Below are positions 2 to 10,083 of a DNA stretch of 11,115 bases, one piece after another. The stretch lies in the NCBI GenBank assembly GCA_022563775.1, contig JADFMS010000043.1:1-11115 (forward strand), read 5' to 3'. The notes under the pieces are model-generated. The model worked only from the letters and a program-made list of their open reading frames with translations. It was not told the DNA's origin and searched no databases. Both the position numbers and the translations under genes were made by a program. The stretch's first letter is position 1, and each line of letters begins with the position of its first letter. The DNA is from Fidelibacterota bacterium (lineage in GTDB: Bacteria > Marinisomatota > SORT01).

Positions 2-1825
2 GAGAAAGGCAAAATGGCGAATCTACTCATCACCGACGGCGACTTATTCAGCAAAAAAACTGTTATCAAAGACGTCTGGATTGACGGCGTCAGATACAAA
101 GTAGATAAAGAGCCGGAAGCCGATCCTATCGGCAAGTGGACCGGCACGATCAGTGTCGACGGCATGGACTCGCAGGAGATGACCCTTGAACTGAAAGGAA
201 GCGTTGAGAAACTTTCCGGCAGCGCCACAATCGCCGGAAAAAAGATGAAGCTGAACTCGCCGGTAATTTCATCTTTCAGGATTGCGTTTTCATTTCCCGC
301 GGATTCCATCGATATATCGGGAATTGTGATGATGTCGGGGAAATTAAGCGAGAAAGGGATAGTGGGTGTCGGAAGCGCGCCCGGAAATAAGAAAATAACC
401 TGGAAATTGACAAAATCAGCGACCGAAGAAGAGGATGAGGAAGATAAAGATTCCGAAGAATTAGCCCCCGCAACCGCGACTATTACTTATCCTCTTGGAG
501 GATTCGGAAGGAGAACTCTTCCGGTTCAAAGCAAATCGGTTCTTGTCAGGAACGCAACCATATGGACGAGCGGGCGGGCCGGAATAATGAAAAATACCGA
601 TCTCCTGGTGAAGAACGGAAAAATATCTAAAATTGGAAAAAACTTGAAAGCTCCAAAGAACTCCGTAGTGATAGACGGTACGGGCAAGCATGTTACGCCC
701 GGACTCATAGACGAACACTCGCACACGGCAATGACCCGGGGCGTGAATGAAGGAAGTCAGGCGGTTACCTCCGAAGTAAGGATAGGAGACGTATTAACCG
801 GCGATTATATCGGCTTGTACAGAGAGCTTGCCGGAGGGCTTACCATGTCTCAGGAACTGCACGGGTCGGCAAATCCGATTGGAGGGCAGGCGGCGATCAT
901 TAAAATTAAATACGGTTCCCTGCCTGAAAAGTTGAAATATACCAAAGCAAAGCCGACTATAAAATTCGCTCTCGGCGAAAATGTGAAGCAGAGTAACTGG
1001 AATCCTCCTGTCCTCAGATATCCCCGCACACGATTGGGTGTGGAACAGATCTTCAGGGACGAATTCAGAGCCGGGCTCGACTACAAAGCCGCAAGAAGGA
1101 AGAAGGGTGGTCTGCCGGTAAGGAGAGACCTCGAGCTCGATGCTATCGTGGATATTATGGAAGGAAAGATGTTCGTTCACTGCCACTCATACCGACAGGA
1201 TGAGATCCTGATGCTTATGAGGGTGGCGGAGGATTTTGGCTTCAGGATAGCGGTATTCACCCATGTACTCGAAGGATATAAAGTTGCAGATGAAATGAAA
1301 AAGCATGGCGCAGGTGCCTCTACCTTCTCGGATTGGTGGATGTATAAGTTCGAAGTATACGATGCAATACCATATAATGGAGCGTTGATGCACGACGTAG
1401 GAGTGGTAACCTCTTTCAATTCGGACAGCAATGAGCTTTCGAGAAGGATGAATCTCGAAGCTGCCAAAGCAGTGGCATATGGCGGAGTGAGCGAGGAAGA
1501 GGCTCTGAAGTTTGTAACTATCAATGCGGCTATACAACTTAAGGTCGATAAGTGGACCGGTTCCCTTGAAAAAGGTAAGGACGGAGATTTTGTTGTCTGG
1601 AGCGGCCATCCGTTAAGCACATTGACAATAGCGGAACAGACCTGGATAGAAGGAACAAAGTGGTTCGATATAGAAGAAGATGCCGCCTTGAGAAAGTCTG
1701 TCGACGAAGAAAGAGAAAAACTGATCCAAAAAATATTAGCCTCGGGAGATAAAAAGAAAGAGACCAACGACGAAAAAAATAAGAAGGATAAAGAATCCGG
1801 TTATAGCAGGAGGGAAGGGAAATGA
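2..1825 (+). CDS. Tandem-domain amidohydrolase (imidazolonepropionase-like), 5' end outside the window
   Basis: Metal-dependent hydrolase of the amidohydrolase superfamily; substrate unknown. The frame is open from the window edge: bases 2-13 encode EKGK, which with the following MANLLITDGDLF is the usual end of an amidohydrolase domain. ATG 14 is therefore probably internal, and the visible part is the second half of a two-domain protein. Numbering from ATG 14, residues 1-30 finish domain 1. Residues about 38-133 form a beta-rich linker domain, followed by an acidic stretch (138-149). A second complete amidohydrolase domain starts near 174. Its metal-site candidates are all present: H235 and H237 (PGLIDEHSH), H389/H391 (VHCHS), H417 (THVLEGYK) and D471 (NSDSNE). 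The tail is rich in Lys and Glu. The stop overlaps the next start by four bases (ATGA), indicating coupled translation. Family assignment is firm; substrate and location are not. Confidence 0.9.
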   Translation, partial: EKGKMANLLITDGDLFSKKTVIKDVWIDGVRYKVDKEPEADPIGKWTGTISVDGMDSQEMTLELKGSVEKLSGSATIAGKKMKLNSPVISSFRIAFSFPADSIDISGIVMMSGKLSEKGIVGVGSAPGNKKITWKLTKSATEEEDEEDKDSEELAPATATITYPLGGFGRRTLPVQSKSVLVRNATIWTSGRAGIMKNTDLLVKNGKISKIGKNLKAPKNSVVIDGTGKHVTPGLIDEHSHTAMTRGVNEGSQAVTSEVRIGDVLTGDYIGLYRELAGGLTMSQELHGSANPIGGQAAIIKIKYGSLPEKLKYTKAKPTIKFALGENVKQSNWNPPVLRYPRTRLGVEQIFRDEFRAGLDYKAARRKKGGLPVRRDLELDAIVDIMEGKMFVHCHSYRQDEILMLMRVAEDFGFRIAVFTHVLEGYKVADEMKKHGAGASTFSDWWMYKFEVYDAIPYNGALMHDVGVVTSFNSDSNELSRRMNLEAAKAVAYGGVSEEEALKFVTINAAIQLKVDKWTGSLEKGKDGDFVVWSGHPLSTLTIAEQTWIEGTKWFDIEEDAALRKSVDEEREKLIQKILASGDKKKETNDEKNKKDKESGYSRREGK

Positions 1826-3230: not shown

Positions 3231-5219
3231 TCAATCACTTTTTAACGCGGTTGTAACGCTGTGCAGCAGGTCTTCAACAAGGCGCGCCGGTTTCTTGAAG
3301 AACATTAGGTTGTCGCGTTCCAGCTTATTTTTAATGTCTTCAACGTAAGCAAATCCTGACGAAAATATAATTTTCTGGTTCGGCGTTTTTTTCCAAATTT
3401 GTTCGGCAAATTGAAATCCATCCATCCCGGGCATTTGGATGTCGGCGATTATTACGTCGGGAGAAAACTGATCGAACACCTTTAGTGCGGATTTACCGTC
3501 CATCGCAGTTTCGACATTATAACCTGATTTTGTCAAAAATCTCCTGTAGCTCTGGCAGAGCATCGGTTCATCGTCAACTATGAGAATCTTAGCCGAAACA
3601 GGTTCACCCTTCGCGACGGAGAGGGAGACGCTGAATGTGGAACCCTTTCCTTTTGTAGAAATAACGTCGATCTTCCCTTTGTACTCGACTTCAATAATGT
3701 CCTTTACTATCAAGAGCCCTATTCCTGTGCCTACGTCCTCCTGCTTGGTAGTAAAATACGGATCGAATATTTTGGGCAAGTCATTTTTCGGGATTCCTGT
3801 GCCGGTATCGTAAATCTTGGTAACGACGAATTTCCGTTCATCATCCATAAGCGTTGATATAACCAGATTTTGGGTTTTTCTTCCCTGCATCGCTTGAAGA
3901 GCGTTGAGAATCAGATTTCTGAAGACCTGGTCTAATTTATCTTTATCAACATTTACCTTAGGCAGTCTTTTGCCGAGATCTAAGGTTAATTTAACAGTCT
4001 TCATTTGTCCGATGGTTTTGAGGGTTTCCACGAGTTCCTTAATAACATTGTTCACATTGATATTTTTTCTTTTCGAGAGTGTCGGCTTACCGAGTCTCAT
4101 GTAACCGGAAGCAAGGCTGATAATATGCTGTATCTCTGTGTTCATATCTTCCACGATTTCATTAATCGATTCATCTTCAATCAGATCTGAAATGACCTCT
4201 GCACATGCTGATATCACCTGGAGCGGATTATTAAGTTCATGGGCAATTTTCGATCCCATCTGTCCTAATGCCGCAAGCTGCTCGGTGTGAACAAGCTGGG
4301 ACCTTATCTGTTTCTCTCTATCATACAGCTCTTTGAATGCGTTATTAGATTCGATCAGTCTCGACTGGCTGTGCAGCAATTTATTGAGCGCCTCCTGGCG
4401 GTCACTGACGTCTTTGCCTAAGATTATCAGGGTTTCGTCATCAAGAATCGGGTTATAAGTAAACTCATAATGAGAACTGCCGATGATCGCGTCTGCAGTG
4501 ATATTTTCTTCGTTTTTAAAAGCTAACTCCATTCTCCTGGCGTGACTCGGAGGGAGAATTTTATTTATATTTTTTTTACCGATCTTATATGCTTTAAGTA
4601 CTTTTTCGACCGCCGGATTGATATACAAAAGATCCCCGGATTTATTGAATTTCATGATCAAATCGGGATTTATGTTCGGTATCTTCTCAAGATCACGGTT
4701 GGCTTTTCCCAGTCTCTCCCTCTCATGTGCTAAAGCAAGAATAGAGGCAATCGATTCGACGAATCTAATTTCCGTTTTATCAAAACCTCCATCTCTCTTT
4801 TGCTGAGAGAATATAAATCCTTTTAGGTTTTTCCCCGCGCTGATAGGCACAACCAGCGCATTAGATTTATCACTTTTTAGCTCTTGAAGTATTTTTGTTT
4901 CTCTTCCGGACTTAATATTGGATTGCGAAAGTAATGTTTCGTATTTGTTCTGTTTAATCCATTTTGAAGGGAGTTTATCTTTATCGAGAAACCTCTTCCG
5001 AACCCTTCCCGCAGAGCCGTTTTCTACAAGCACTTCGAATGAAGGTGACCTATCGTACTTCCAAAAAATCGCAGTGTAATTAGAAGAAAGACCTGAAGCT
5101 ATGGAAGAATTAATTGATTTTAAAATCGATGCCCAATCTTTCCCTTTGAGCGCTGAATCGGTTGCCTCTGATAAGTAATTTAGCATCGGTTCGTGTAACG
5201 ATTTTTTGTTCTTTTTCAT
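3231..5219 (-). CDS. Soluble hybrid sensor histidine kinase (GAF-like, PAS, HisKA, HATPase, receiver)
   Basis: A 662-residue hybrid histidine kinase with no membrane segment, so it should sense a cytoplasmic signal. A divergent GAF-like region covers about 15-165 (ALVVPISAGKNLKGFIF, then a helical end). A PAS-like domain covers about 178-275, and a coiled linker about 276-312. The dimerisation/phosphoacceptor domain has H327 in GSKIAHELNNPLQ. The ATP-binding domain has the N box around N435/N439, DTGTGIP at 471-477 and GTGIGL at 497-502. The C-terminal receiver (about 543-660) has the acidic pair D549/D550, phosphoacceptor D593 (ADIQMPG), S620 and K643 (KKP). Kinase and receiver are both intact, so internal phosphotransfer is plausible, but no DNA-binding output or separate regulator lies nearby. 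Start ATG 5219 has only a weak SD; a G run sits about 15 bases upstream. The cysteine-rich gene 195 bases upstream points the same way; cotranscription is possible but unproven. Confidence 0.93.
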   Translation of the reverse strand: MKKNKKSLHEPMLNYLSEATDSALKGKDWASILKSINSSIASGLSSNYTAIFWKYDRSPSFEVLVENGSAGRVRKRFLDKDKLPSKWIKQNKYETLLSQSNIKSGRETKILQELKSDKSNALVVPISAGKNLKGFIFSQQKRDGGFDKTEIRFVESIASILALAHERERLGKANRDLEKIPNINPDLIMKFNKSGDLLYINPAVEKVLKAYKIGKKNINKILPPSHARRMELAFKNEENITADAIIGSSHYEFTYNPILDDETLIILGKDVSDRQEALNKLLHSQSRLIESNNAFKELYDREKQIRSQLVHTEQLAALGQMGSKIAHELNNPLQVISACAEVISDLIEDESINEIVEDMNTEIQHIISLASGYMRLGKPTLSKRKNINVNNVIKELVETLKTIGQMKTVKLTLDLGKRLPKVNVDKDKLDQVFRNLILNALQAMQGRKTQNLVISTLMDDERKFVVTKIYDTGTGIPKNDLPKIFDPYFTTKQEDVGTGIGLLIVKDIIEVEYKGKIDVISTKGKGSTFSVSLSVAKGEPVSAKILIVDDEPMLCQSYRRFLTKSGYNVETAMDGKSALKVFDQFSPDVIIADIQMPGMDGFQFAEQIWKKTPNQKIIFSSGFAYVEDIKNKLERDNLMFFKKPARLVEDLLHSVTTALKSD

Positions 5220-6079: not shown

Positions 6080-7456
6080 TTGGCAAATAACGTAACCGAT
6101 CTGATAAACGAAAACGAATTACGCTATCTCGAACAACTCAAGGAATTCGTAAGGATTCCGAGCGTAAGTGCGGACCCCGATAGAAAAAAGGAGGTTTTGT
6201 CTTGCGCTAACTGGGTGAGGGATGAATTAGAACGCATTGGGTTGGATAATTCGGAAGTCATGGAGACAGATGGACATCCGGTTGTATATGCAGAGTGGGT
6301 TAGAGATGAAAAGAAGCCGACTGCTTTGATATATGGTCATTATGACGTTCAGCCCGAAGACCCGGTGGAGCTCTGGGATTCTCCTCCATTTGAGCCCACA
6401 GTGAGAAACGGCGGACTATACGGGCGGGGAACAGTGGATGATAAGGGTCAGATATTGCTTCACATGAAGGCGGTTGAAGCGCTTATGCAAAGCGAAGGAT
6501 CGCTCCCGATCAATATCAAATTTATCATCGAAGGAGAGGAGGAGATAGGAAGCCCTAATCTCGTCCCCCTGATAAAAAATAACGTTGAAAAGCTCCGGGC
6601 TGATCTGGTATTGATTTCGGATTCACACATGTTTGCAAAAGGAATACCTTCCATATGCTATGGATTGAGGGGCTTGGTGTATTTTGAATTGACCGTTGAG
6701 GGAACAAAGAGCGATCTTCATTCAGGGACGTTCGGCGGGGCGGTTATAAACCCTGCCAATGCGCTTGCCGGGATCATATCAAAATTGAAGGATGAGGACG
6801 GCAGGATTCAGATACCCGGAATATATGACGATGTTTTGGAGTTGACCGATGCCGAAAGAGAAGCATTTGAAAAATTACCATTTGATGATGAGAAATATCG
6901 AGAGGCTCTCGGGGCGCCGGCACTTTTCGGAGAAAAAGGGTATTCCACGCTTGAAAGAACATGGGCGAGACCTACCCTCGACGTTAACGGTATTATAGCA
7001 GGATATACGGGTGAAGGAGCCAAAACCGTCATCCCGGCAAAAGCGTCCGCAAAAATCAGCCTCCGGTTGGTTCCGAATCAGGACCCGTTAAAAATTGAGG
7101 AGTTATTCAAATCATACATTGATGAAATTTCACCGGATGCGGTTAAAGTCACAGTTGAATCTCTGCACAACGGAATGCCTTATATCTCCCCTACGGACAA
7201 TCCGATATTCGACTCGGTCAGAGAAGCCCTGAAAAAGGGGTTTGGGGCTGACGCCGTGTTGATGAGGGAGGGCGGCTCTATCCCTATCGTCACCGATTTT
7301 GCAGAAATCTTGAATACACCTGTCATATTGATCGGCTTCGGGCTTCCCGATGAGAATGCGCACGCTCCAAACGAATGGATAGACCTTGAAAACTTTCAGA
7401 AAGGAATTTTGTCTATGGCATATTTGTATCAAGGTTTAGCAAAAGACGGAGTGTAG
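6080..7456 (+). CDS. M20 family metallodipeptidase
   Basis: A 458-residue cytoplasmic peptidase of the M20 family (ArgE/DapE/ACY1/CPG2/CNDP type), of normal length. It hydrolyses dipeptides or similar acyl-amino compounds with two metal ions. Visible site residues: H87 and D89 (GHYDVQP), bridging D120 (GTVDDKG), catalytic E154 and ligand E155 (EGEEEIGS), D181 (ISDS), and H428 (ENAHAPNE). The lid or dimerisation domain, about 195-310, includes H214 (DLHSGTFGG), which in this family reaches into the partner's active site. The start codon is TTG 6080, supported by GGGAGGA at 6066-6072 seven bases upstream; no ATG fits better. A weak -10 candidate TATACT at 6026-6031 has no clear -35. It is divergent from the cysteine-rich gene, with about 175 bases between starts. 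Peptide specificity cannot be read from the sequence. Confidence 0.95.
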   Translation: MANNVTDLINENELRYLEQLKEFVRIPSVSADPDRKKEVLSCANWVRDELERIGLDNSEVMETDGHPVVYAEWVRDEKKPTALIYGHYDVQPEDPVELWDSPPFEPTVRNGGLYGRGTVDDKGQILLHMKAVEALMQSEGSLPINIKFIIEGEEEIGSPNLVPLIKNNVEKLRADLVLISDSHMFAKGIPSICYGLRGLVYFELTVEGTKSDLHSGTFGGAVINPANALAGIISKLKDEDGRIQIPGIYDDVLELTDAEREAFEKLPFDDEKYREALGAPALFGEKGYSTLERTWARPTLDVNGIIAGYTGEGAKTVIPAKASAKISLRLVPNQDPLKIEELFKSYIDEISPDAVKVTVESLHNGMPYISPTDNPIFDSVREALKKGFGADAVLMREGGSIPIVTDFAEILNTPVILIGFGLPDENAHAPNEWIDLENFQKGILSMAYLYQGLAKDGV

Positions 7457-7473
7457 ATTAAGTAAATATCTTC

Positions 7474-7499
7474 ACCCCGATGAACGGGTACAAATTTTT
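7474..7499 (+). terminator. Weak intrinsic terminator candidate after the dipeptidase
   Basis: A short stem, CCCG (7476-7479) with CGGG (7485-7488), extended by A7474-T7489 across a bulge, has the loop ATGAA. TTTTT follows at 7495-7499 after a five-base gap. It sits 18 bases past the dipeptidase stop and touches the end of the convergent SelW-like gene. The stem is short, so efficiency is doubtful. Confidence 0.35.
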
Positions 7500-7723
7500 C
7501 AGTTCAGAGAGTCTAAACTACCCAGAATTTCTGAATTCTCCGGGAACCTCCCGAGTTGCTTTTTCGAAAAGATATTTTCTCCGTTAACAACAACTTCAAA
7601 GACTCCTTTGTCGGAAGCTATGAGTTCGCTCTTAACATCAAATTTTGTTTCGATTTCAGCCGCCAAACTGGTGGCTTGAGGCAGATAGCCTCAGACGCTG
7701 CAATATTCGATACTGATATTCAA
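7499..7723 (-). CDS. SelW-like selenoprotein (Rdx family) with in-frame UGA in a CxxU motif
   Basis: A 74-residue thioredoxin-fold redox protein of the Rdx (SelW/SelT/SelH) family, read through TGA 7691-7693 as selenocysteine U11. The start of the product reads MNISIEYCSVUGYLPQATSL, giving a C8-S-V-U11 redox motif. Then comes LAAEIE, followed by GVFEVVVNGENIFSKK (40-55) and GRFPE (58-62). All of these are family hallmarks after the UGA in the same frame, so the TGA is not the end of the gene. The ordinary stop is TGA at 7499-7501. Start TTG 7723 has AAAAGGA about 6 bases upstream; no in-frame ATG exists before the upstream TAA. A hairpin fitting a bacterial SECIS follows the UGA. The gene is 77 bases downstream of a small membrane protein gene on the same strand. 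Known relatives exchange thiol/selenol redox; the partner here is unknown. An alternative is a cysteine-to-stop mutation in a dying gene, but the rest of the frame is clean. Confidence 0.85.
7658..7676 (-). promoter_or_regulatory. Candidate bacterial SECIS hairpin
   Basis: Minus-strand AGCCACCAGTTTGGCGGCT folds as AGCC/GGCT, an A-C mismatch, then CC/GG, with loop AGTTT (7665-7669). The loop begins 21 bases after the UGA and has G as its second base followed by U. This matches what is known of bacterial SECIS elements: an apical loop about 16-37 bases after the UGA with a G in its first two positions. SelB would bind it to recruit Sec-tRNA. A second stem, TGAGGC/GCCTCA (7677-7693), encloses the UGA itself. 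Folding was judged by eye. Confidence 0.6.
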
Positions 7724-7800
7724 GTCATTTCCTTTTATCAAAAGTTTTCCGGCTACTGAATTTACACAGGTTTAAATCAGATACAAGAAAATGTGCATGT

Positions 7801-8196
7801 CTATGTTCCGCCGGGAAATTCCTGCGATATAGTCACTTCTATATAGTCTTTCACTTTATGAAGGAAAAGCATAGGTCCGGGCTCAGCCGGGTTTAAGCCT
7901 CTGTCGCGAATGTAATCGTATTCAATCATAAAAAAGATGGCGTTTTTCAATGTTAATCCTGTCTGGAATGATAAGGCTTCGTAATGAGTCTTAAGAGATT
8001 CATTTTTATCGTTTTTTATTTTCAGTCTGAGGAGTCTGCTTGCGAGATTGTTTTCATTTGCTTCGGGTAATTGTTTTTTGAGTTTCTTATACACGTCGAT
8101 CTGAGCTTTAACGTCGTTCTTCCATCCTGACCAACGAGAAAAAAATATTCCCCCAGCGAGTAGCAAAATCGCCGAAATTAAGTATAAGAAGATCAT
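7801..8196 (-). CDS. Small single-pass membrane protein of unknown function
   Basis: 131 residues. Residues 2-20 (IFLYLISAILLLAGGIFFS) form one strongly hydrophobic segment, followed by RW and a Lys-rich stretch (25-62). This suggests an N-terminal anchor with the rest in the cytoplasm. The remainder looks mainly helical, with a conserved-looking block IEYDYIRDRGLNPAEPGP (91-108). I recognise no domain. Start ATG 8196 has no clear SD, but a strong promoter sits about 35 bases before it. The SelW-like gene begins 77 bases downstream with no terminator seen between them, so the two may share a transcript. Confidence 0.72.
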   Translation of the reverse strand: MIFLYLISAILLLAGGIFFSRWSGWKNDVKAQIDVYKKLKKQLPEANENNLASRLLRLKIKNDKNESLKTHYEALSFQTGLTLKNAIFFMIEYDYIRDRGLNPAEPGPMLFLHKVKDYIEVTISQEFPGGT

Positions 8197-8238
8197 AACA
8201 AATTATTTAATGTTTGCTCACCCATAATAACGGTGAAA

Positions 8239-8267
8239 AATATATCCAGCTTTAAAATCAATGTCAA
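8239..8267 (-). promoter_or_regulatory. Sigma-70-type promoter for the membrane protein (and possibly SelW-like) genes
   Basis: On the minus strand a perfect TTGACA (8262-8267) is followed after 17 bases by TATATT (8239-8244). The predicted start is near 8232, giving a leader of about 35 bases to ATG 8196. It is back to back with the promoter of the HD-GYP gene. Confidence 0.65.
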
Positions 8268-8297
8268 AGAATTGTTGACGATATCATTCATAAACAC

Positions 8298-8326
8298 TTG
8301 ATATGTAATATATGGTAGAATATATT
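8298..8326 (+). promoter_or_regulatory. Candidate promoter of the GAF/HD-GYP gene
   Basis: TTGATA (8298-8303), a 17-base spacer, then TATATT (8321-8326): each box differs from consensus by one base. Transcription would start near 8333, leaving a leader of about 107 bases that contains three inverted repeats. Confidence 0.55.
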
Positions 8327-8338
8327 TAACGCCTTGCA

Positions 8339-8398
8339 TAATGGTACCATTAACAAGTTTTAGAAAGGAATTATTTTCCTGATATTTTCTGAAAATAT
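8339..8398 (+). repeat. Three inverted repeats in the HD-GYP leader (operator candidates)
   Basis: TAATGGTACCATTA (8339-8352) is a perfect 14-base palindrome just past the predicted transcription start, a typical repressor-site position. AGGAA/TTCCT (8366-8370 and 8376-8380) encloses 5 bases. ATATTTTC-T-GAAAATAT (8382-8398) is a perfect 8-base inverted repeat around one base. The single-base centre of the last, and the absence of a loop in the first, favour protein binding to DNA over RNA hairpins. No regulator can be named. Confidence 0.45.
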
Positions 8399-8439
8399 AT
8401 TGCTGACATAACGTACTTCATATATCAGATCCGGCGAAG

Positions 8440-10083
8440 ATGAATAAAAGAGAGAAAGAACTACAAGATTTCGCACAAAAACAGCGGGAACAATCCAAAA
8501 AGTTAATAGATATCGGTATTGCTCTTTCTGCGGAAAAGAACATAGCTGTTCTTTTGGAGCTTATCGTTGACAGCGCACGCAGCTTTACTAATGCGGACGG
8601 GGGAACGTTGTATCTCGTCGGCTCCGATCAGAAAACGCTCGATTTTGAAATTGTCCAGACAGACAGCCTTGATATCAGGATGGGTGGCAAAACAGGAGAA
8701 GAAATTGATTGGCCTCCTGTGCAGATGTACAAAGAAGACGGTTCGCCGAACAAGGAGAACGTATCGGCAAACGTGGCTATAACAAAGCAGCTTGTGAACA
8801 TTCCCGATGTGTACGACGTTGAGGGATTTAATTTTGAGGGAACCCGAAAGTTTGATGAGAGCACAGGCTACCGTTCTCAATCGATGCTTGTTATTCCTAT
8901 GTTGAACCACGAAAACGAAATAATCGGCGTCTTGCAGCTGATAAATGCGAGAGACACGGAAACGAATGAGACGATACCTTTTCCGGACGAAGATATAGAT
9001 TTGACAGCGTCCGTTGCCTCACAGGCTGCAGTGGCGCTTACCAACGTCCGGTTGATTCAGGATTTAAAAGACCTGTTTGATGCGTTTATCCAAACAATTG
9101 CCACAGCAATTGACGAAAAGTCGCCGTATACCGCGGGACATATCACTCGCGTTGCTAATCTCACGATGGAAATCGCCCGGGTGGTAAATAAAACCAAATG
9201 GGGCAAGTACGGAAGTCTCAAGTTCTCAGAAGATGAACTTGAAGAGTTGAGGCTTGCCGCATGGATGCATGACGTCGGTAAAATAACGACTCCGGAGCAT
9301 GTGGTAGACAAGAGTACCAAGCTCGAAAAAATATTTGACCGGGTAGAACTATTGAAGCTCAGGTTTGAAGCGATAAAATTTCAAACATATTATGATTGGT
9401 CTGAGCGGAAATCGAAACTGCTCTCTTCAGACGGAAGCGATCCTAAAAAAGTAAAGCAATTGGATGAAGAGTTCTCTGCAAAAATCAAAGAATTGGAAAG
9501 TGACGCAGAATTTACTCTTAATTGCAACGCACCGGGGGAGTTTATGGAAGACGAGTTGATCGAGCGGCTTCAGAAAATATCGAAAAAAACGTTTGAATTC
9601 GAAGGTAAAACATACAATTATATTTCAGAAGATGAGTTGGAAAATCTTAGCATCAAACGCGGAACGCTTAATGTGGAAGATAGAAAGATAATTGAGAACC
9701 ATGCCATGGTGACCTTGAAAATGCTCAAGCAACTGCCGTTCAGCAATAAACTAAAACACGTACCTGAATATGCGGCAGCGCATCATGAAAAACTCAACGG
9801 AACGGGCTACCCGCTTAAGCTCAAAGGAGAAGAGATTTCAGTTCAGGCGAGAATTATGGCTATTGCGGACATATTCGAAGCGTTAACCGCCAAAGACAGG
9901 CCGTATAAGGATCCCATGAAACTCTCGCAAGCAATAAAGATACTTGGATTTATGGTAAAAGATGATCACCTCGACGGAGACCTTGTTGAAATATTTCTGA
10001 AAGAGGGTATGGCTGAAGCGTACGCCGCTGAACATCTATTACCGGCGCAGATAGACTGGAAGACGTCCGATCTGGAATCATGA
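8440..10083 (+). CDS. GAF domain HD-GYP phosphohydrolase, probable cyclic-di-GMP phosphodiesterase
   Basis: 547 residues, cytoplasmic. A short N-terminal coiled stretch (1-25) leads into a GAF sensor domain (about 22-205; NADGGTLYLV and IIGVLQLINA are typical), then a helical linker and an HD-GYP domain (about 213-525). Active-site residues are present: H234 (GHITRV), H277-D278 with K281 (HDVGK), H421 (ENHAM), H448-H449 (HHEKLNGTGYP, with GYP at 456-458) and D477 (ADIFEALTAKDRPYK). Complete HD-GYP motifs indicate hydrolysis of cyclic di-GMP, or possibly another cyclic dinucleotide. About 140 residues separate HDVGK from H421, where classic HD-GYP proteins have roughly 30, so a charged helical insertion (about 297-405) interrupts the domain. 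Start ATG 8440 has no strong SD. It is preceded by its own promoter and a palindrome-rich leader; no diguanylate cyclase gene is in the window. Confidence 0.93.
   Translation: MNKREKELQDFAQKQREQSKKLIDIGIALSAEKNIAVLLELIVDSARSFTNADGGTLYLVGSDQKTLDFEIVQTDSLDIRMGGKTGEEIDWPPVQMYKEDGSPNKENVSANVAITKQLVNIPDVYDVEGFNFEGTRKFDESTGYRSQSMLVIPMLNHENEIIGVLQLINARDTETNETIPFPDEDIDLTASVASQAAVALTNVRLIQDLKDLFDAFIQTIATAIDEKSPYTAGHITRVANLTMEIARVVNKTKWGKYGSLKFSEDELEELRLAAWMHDVGKITTPEHVVDKSTKLEKIFDRVELLKLRFEAIKFQTYYDWSERKSKLLSSDGSDPKKVKQLDEEFSAKIKELESDAEFTLNCNAPGEFMEDELIERLQKISKKTFEFEGKTYNYISEDELENLSIKRGTLNVEDRKIIENHAMVTLKMLKQLPFSNKLKHVPEYAAAHHEKLNGTGYPLKLKGEEISVQARIMAIADIFEALTAKDRPYKDPMKLSQAIKILGFMVKDDHLDGDLVEIFLKEGMAEAYAAEHLLPAQIDWKTSDLES

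What the first reader, a model, noticed from the sequence alone, without database searches (positions are those of the whole stretch)
7499..7723. Hidden SelW-like selenoprotein gene with UGA in a CxxU motif
The minus strand encodes 10 residues ending in C-S-V, a TGA, and then 63 residues in the same frame that carry Rdx-family hallmarks (GYLPQATSLAAEIE, FEVVVNG, IFSKK, GRFPE). The TGA falls exactly on the second redox residue of the CxxC/CxxU motif. With a TTG start and an internal TGA, normal gene callers would miss it or call an antisense ORF. It implies a working selenocysteine pathway in this organism. The Rdx motifs and CxxU position are established knowledge; the frame is read directly from the sequence.
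Basis: partly seen in the sequence, partly recalled or inferred. Interest (0 to 1): 0.85.

Follow-up and report, generated by a model that had tools for sequence, protein, structure and literature searches.

The report
SelW-like selenoprotein gene in marine bacterium
This short stretch encodes a small redox protein that contains selenocysteine, the 21st amino acid, read from a codon that usually means stop; the gene is real, but it belongs to an already well-known family of marine bacterial selenoproteins.

Summary
With Cys written at the TGA it matches Pfam Rdx (1.7e-19) and NCBIfam NF041051 (2.7e-27). The window's assembly is not held; named kin are Neomarinimicrobiota. All 19 of 41 relatives with an Rdx match carry one TGA in it. 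Nearest kin G001 has selA, selB, selD and a tRNA-Sec with anticodon TCA. A hairpin after the UGA fits the published bacterial SECIS model. Its 18-30 pair joins two third codon positions and has the best covariation score in two sequence sets, which protein constraint does not explain. The 80 best of 363 relatives in named genomes all have TGA there. The public protein of this window is a 61-residue piece lacking CxxU. SelW-like selenoproteins were reported as abundant in marine bacteria in 2005-2008. So: a firm new member of a known kind, hidden by annotation, with unknown substrate.

The parts
7499..7723 (-). SelW-like (Rdx) selenoprotein gene, 74 residues with Sec at 11, TTG start, TGA stop
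7691..7693 (-). Sec UGA codon, second redox position of C8-x-x-U11
7658..7676 (-). bacterial SECIS hairpin (positions 15-33 after the UGA, 6 of 7 pairs); apical loop 7665-7669 AGUUU with the invariant G at 7668; A.C mismatch at 19-29 in the window
7499..7501 (-). TGA used as the stop of the same frame
   Evidence: some kin end in TAA or TAG here
7730..7735 (-). AAAGGA, probable ribosome binding site 6 bases before TTG (read by eye)
   Evidence: sequence; inference
7759..7786 (-). TTG of TTGTAT, 16 bases, TAAATT: TTG and TAAATT conserved in G001-G004; possible promoter (inference; not reported by the sigma-70 scan)
7801..8196 (-). upstream 131-residue protein without Pfam match, same strand, neighbour conserved in G001-G004
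7556..7759 (+). antisense ORF, broken in three of four kin, spurious

Best explanation
A genuine selenoprotein gene of the SelW-like (Rdx, CxxU) family in a Neomarinimicrobiota bacterium. Shown: the frame on both sides of the UGA is one conserved coding frame; the UGA stands where relatives of solved structure have Cys; a SECIS-type hairpin follows, its loop starting 21 bases after the UGA; the nearest genome encodes SelA, SelB, SelD and a tRNA-Sec with anticodon TCA. Inferred from established knowledge of the bacterial pathway: SelB with GTP brings Sec-tRNA to the UGA while the mRNA hairpin binds SelB, so the codon is read as Sec, and the second TGA of the frame ends translation. Inferred function: a 74-residue thioredoxin-like protein whose C8/U11 pair between strand 1 and helix 1 forms and breaks a selenenylsulfide, so that it reduces an unknown disulfide or peroxide partner and is recycled by a cellular thiol system.
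For: Rdx profile match across the UGA. UGA at the CxxU place in the window, L001-L019, L050-L078 and L079-L158 (129 of 129) and in L159-L178 (20 of 20). Against L008, L009 and L010 together, third codon positions hold 11 of 15 substitutions before the UGA, 27 of 46 in the next 63 bases and 82 of 129 after that (L008 and L010 are close kin, so the counts are not independent). Hairpin: 67 of 67 distinct phylum sequences and 70 of 71 distinct sequences of other phyla keep at least 4 of 7 pairs with a G in the first two loop positions; the G at position 23 is the same in all 138. Pair 18-30 joins two third codon positions: 44 of 45 four-fold cases pair, shuffles mean 21.5, highest of 20,000 is 33; other phyla 59 of 61, mean 42.5, highest 52. 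Sec machinery in kin. Model pLDDT 89.7; best PDB matches are SelW-related proteins (2fa8, TMq 0.83-0.92), later mouse SelW and thioredoxins.
Against: The window's own assembly is not held, so its Sec genes are inferred from kin. 17 of 144 Rdx-bearing genomes of the phylum show no SelA at 1e-60; of these 15 of 17 have SelD and 1 of 17 has SelB over the cut-off. 15 of these 17 are under 90% complete, which may explain it but was not proven. On a 23-base segment L018 folds at -4.6 and L006 at -7.3 kcal/mol, weaker than the published limit of -7.5. L084 keeps only 2 of 7 pairs. PMC5029168 lists three SAR406 single cells as having orphan SelD, that is, without the rest of the pathway. The tRNA-Sec profile passes its cut-off in 5 of 14 control genomes, so it is not proof alone. 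No peptide data. The shuffles ignore relatedness.
Confidence: 0.96

Rival explanations
1. A pseudogene or a sequencing error: TGA replaces a former TGT or TGC and the gene is dead or really has Cys.
For: None beyond the in-frame stop.
Against: TGA at the same codon in all 149 copies read, most of them from separate assemblies; third-position substitution bias on both sides; covarying hairpin.
Confidence: 0.01
2. Genome-wide recoding of TGA (for example to Trp), so position 11 is Trp.
For: 11 of 22 public hits, all those that reach across the motif, show W at this place.
Against: Reading TGA as a residue adds only 4, 18 and 4 residues to the ends of three large genes of the window (14-1825, 3231-5219, 8440-10083), so TGA looks like their stop; the Rdx frame itself ends in TGA in the window and in L001, L009, L011, L014 and L015; hairpin and Sec machinery are present in kin.
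Confidence: 0.01
3. Two separate products: a 10-residue leader and a re-initiated C-terminal protein of about 61 residues, as the public record has it.
For: P0002 is predicted so.
Against: It would lack the redox motif, although C8, the Sec position and the N-terminal strand residues are conserved; [quoted passage not shown]
Confidence: 0.02

Closest known systems
Bacterial SelW-like (SELENOW-like) selenoprotein, PF10262, CxxU; in the table of PMC13188914 and in the Sargasso Sea and GOS surveys PMC1088965 and PMC2398784
   Same: Family profile, CxxU motif, bacterial SECIS directly after the UGA, marine kin
   Different: Nothing of kind. The passages that I read do not name this lineage for SelW-like. 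In f14, f28, f29 and f30 of the phylum the segment after the motif reads PEFDRVSK or close variants instead of PxAxSLA, yet the hairpin is kept
NCBIfam NF041051 SelTWH_Campy
   Same: 94.8 bits against a cut-off of 88
   Different: By its name a campylobacter model; the window is Neomarinimicrobiota by kinship
SelW-related proteins of solved structure: 2fa8, 2p0g, 2obk, 3dex
   Same: Fold, 29-37% identity in the structure search
   Different: Cys at the second redox place in 2fa8 and 3dex (alignments seen); not looked at for the other two

Membership tests
Rdx family PF10262 | Score over the curated cut-off | tested here: met
   70.2 bits against 22.6
Rdx family PF10262 | CxxC or CxxU between strand 1 and helix 1 of a thioredoxin-like fold | tested here: met
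   C8, U11; strand 3-8, helix 14-28; PDB matches SelW-related proteins first, thioredoxins later at E 0.0035 and above
NCBIfam NF041051 | Score over the curated cut-off | tested here: met
   94.8 bits against 88
Bacterial SelW-like selenoprotein | In-frame UGA at the second redox residue, aligned with Cys in homologues | tested here: met
Bacterial SelW-like selenoprotein | bSECIS: loop 3-9 nt, stem 4-16 bp, G in first two loop positions, 16-37 nt from UGA, energy at most -7.5 kcal/mol (model as printed in PMC13188914) | tested here: met
   Window: loop 5 nt (3 in the minimum-energy fold), 6 of 7 pairs with one mismatch, G in place, 21-22 nt, -9.3 kcal/mol for a 23-base segment
Bacterial SelW-like selenoprotein | selA, selB, selC, selD in the same genome | tested here: inconclusive
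   Own assembly not held; all four in nearest kin G001
Bacterial SelW-like selenoprotein | Selenium in the protein | not testable with these tools
   needs mass spectrometry or 75Se labelling

The most novel reading that the evidence does not exclude
In Neomarinimicrobiota this family may be locked to selenocysteine: the listing for 245 genomes shows no Cys form, the gene goes with the Sec pathway, and the SECIS hairpin persists where the protein sequence over it has changed almost completely. SelW-like could then be one of the proteins that keep the Sec pathway alive in this phylum.
Probability: 0.45. Interest if true: 0.4.

Novelty: new member of a known kind. Interest (0 to 1): 0.25.

Why it matters
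It corrects a public protein call that loses the active site, and shows for one marine phylum that Rdx is a Sec protein in every copy whose motif was read. The covariation of two third codon positions gives evidence for the SECIS hairpin that does not rest on the protein, and could serve as a test for other candidate UGA genes. It does not open a new kind of biology.

Tried and rejected
Sequencing error, pseudogene, recoded TGA and a split gene were considered and rejected (see rivals). The antisense ORF was tested and rejected. Rfam gave no match at gathering scores for the window and two matches far below their gathering scores for 7600-7760, so it did not catch this hairpin. The sigma-70 scan gave 3 sites against 3.6 expected in 7400-8500 and is uninformative; the upstream TTG-16-TAAATT was seen by eye. 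(SelD frame of G001) did not show its start and was not used. Neomarinimicrobiota with selenoproteins in print: the searches listed 4, 2 and 3 papers; I read passages of one of them (PMC5029168) and of the others only the listing, so I do not claim that nothing is in print.

Full report
What was claimed and checked. The finding gives 7499-7723 on the minus strand as a SelW-like selenoprotein. One search confirms every detail: TTG start at 7723, 10 residues ending in C-S-V, UGA at 7693..7691, 63 residues, and a final TGA. Read with Cys at the UGA, the protein matches Pfam Rdx with 70.2 bits and NCBIfam NF041051 with 94.8 bits, over its cut-off of 88.

Where it comes from. The window's own assembly is not held. 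The nearest genome, G001, shares 31% of the window's sampled 31-letter words. The gene lies between an M20 peptidase and a 131-residue protein without Pfam match, followed by a GAF-HD protein. M20 and the 131-residue neighbour lie beside it in G001 to G004; the GAF-HD protein is found there in G002 to G004, while the G001 contig ends before it.

Is the UGA conserved. 19 of 41 relatives have an Rdx match, and all 19 have exactly one TGA inside. Of 245 genomes of the phylum, 144 match at E 0.001 and 143 over the cut-off. In that listing, which the tool cut at its end, every place has one TGA except six; those six are partial matches that begin at profile position 16 or later, after the motif, and for G065, G090 and G143 such a piece is all that was found. 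No Cys form was seen in the listing. Where I read the sequence, the UGA is at the CxxU place in 49 of 49 copies (window, L001-L019, L050-L078) and in 20 of 20 more (L159-L178). In named genomes, 363 stretches encode relatives and the best 80 were kept; 80 of 80 have TGA there, among them Zixibacteria, Planctomycetota, Acidobacteria and SAR324; L079 and L080 among them are the same loci as L010 and L008. The other 283 were not seen, so Cys forms may lie among them.

Is there a SECIS. Numbering bases after the UGA, a helix with i+j=48 (15-33 to 21-27) closes a five-base loop. Among all pairs of the 54 positions tested, 18-30 has the best score (covariation minus a penalty for unpaired cases) in the phylum set (47 distinct sequences) and in the other-phyla set (71). 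Both bases are third codon positions. Where both codons are four-fold degenerate, 44 of 45 sequences pair in the phylum (shuffles: mean 21.5, highest of 20,000 33; the exception is L058), and 59 of 61 in the other phyla (mean 42.5, highest 52). Ranked by z among 136 third-position pairs, 18-30 is first in the phylum (8.5) and 15-33 second (3.2, equal to one decimal with 6-48); in the others 21-27 (10.2, with little variation), 18-30 (9.8) and 15-33 (5.1) are first to third. These shuffles do not allow for relatedness. With 20 more copies added (19 of the diverged type of f14, f28, f29 and f30, and one of f31), 67 of 67 distinct phylum sequences (from 71) and 70 of 71 others (from 78) keep at least 4 of 7 pairs with G at loop position 1 or 2, and the G at position 23 is the same in all 138; L084 is the one that fails, with 2 pairs. 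Single pairs vary: in the phylum 17-31 pairs in 37 of 67 and 15-33 in 35 of 67. In the diverged type the residues over the helix differ almost altogether, yet 18-30 pairs in 20 of 20, L018 included. In the window 19-29 is an A.C mismatch. The window's 49 bases from the UGA fold at -19.3 kcal/mol, z -4.0, 1 of 200 shuffles as good; part of that energy comes from a second hairpin that pairs the UGA itself. The published model of the bacterial SECIS (passage seen in PMC13188914) is met in all four points by the window (-9.3 kcal/mol on 23 bases); L018 (-4.6) and L006 (-7.3) miss its energy limit on that short segment.

The machinery. In the 41 relatives, SelA, SelB and SelD each pass their cut-off in 29 and tRNA-Sec in 26, in a search with stricter filters. 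In the 14 control genomes these profiles pass in 1, 2, 2 and 5. All 19 Rdx genomes are among the 29 with SelA. G001 has adjacent selA and selB, selD with one in-frame TGA, and a tRNA-Sec with anticodon TCA. Over 245 genomes, Rdx (E 0.001) and SelA (E 1e-60) occur together in 127, Rdx alone in 17, SelA alone in 50, neither in 51 (Fisher p 4e-11, relatedness ignored). Of the 17, SelD is found in 15 and SelB over the cut-off in 1. 15 of the 17 are under 90% complete, which I take as the cause; this is not proven. PMC5029168 lists three SAR406 single cells with orphan SelD (passage seen), which also may be a matter of partial genomes.

What the protein is. The AlphaFold model (29 sequences, pLDDT 89.7, pTM 0.75) has strand 3-8, the C8-x-x-U11 loop and helix 14-28 (Cys stands for Sec in it). 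Its best PDB matches are bacterial SelW-related proteins, then MIEN1, mouse SelW and thioredoxins. By sequence, a Cys of 2fa8, 3dex and 2ljk aligns with the UGA place. A redox role through a selenenylsulfide is inferred from the motif; the partner is unknown.

What the public record has. Of 22 protein hits, 11 (P0004-P0014) reach across the motif and all 11 show W there; the other 11, including the window's own P0002, start after it. The W is most simply a table-4 translation of the UGA; I did not see their DNA.

Prior knowledge. Passages of PMC1088965, PMC2398784, PMC1794560 and PMC13188914 were seen. They list SelW-like CxxU as a bacterial selenoprotein family: 48 unique sequences in the Sargasso Sea, 427 selenoproteins against 56 Cys homologues in GOS, generally the most abundant family in marine samples, and with very few or no Cys homologues in Sec-using organisms. 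PMC12013277 was searched for SelW and related terms; only 'stem-loop' was found. The finding is therefore a new member of a known kind, and the absence of Cys forms in the listing for this phylum extends a trend stated in 2006.

Noticed in passing
P0004-P0014: All 11 public full-length relatives found carry Trp at the Sec position, probably from translation of the UGA with table 4; a CxxW Rdx family would be an artefact.
   Followed up: partly
G013, G018, G022, G026, G030, G034, G038: These seven genomes have a stop-free SelD-matching frame of 724-745 residues, and none has an Rdx match; of the 22 whose SelD match holds a TGA, 19 have Rdx.
   Followed up: no
G174:C88:1772-1939; G152:C39:116522-116623; G153:C28:126435-126530: Rdx-like pieces without the CxxU part; the last two lie about 3 kb from a TGA-bearing copy on the same contig.
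   Followed up: no
L018 and L159-L177: A diverged Rdx type with PEFDRVSK-like and PRSGAFE-like motifs keeps the hairpin with other bases, such as TTTGACCGTGTGTCAAA.
   Followed up: partly
window 7759-7786 (-): TTG, then TAAATT at fixed distance, is conserved upstream of the gene in G001-G004 and may be a promoter of its own.
   Followed up: partly
window 7801-8196 (-): 131-residue protein without Pfam match, neighbour of the Rdx gene in G001-G004.
   Followed up: partly
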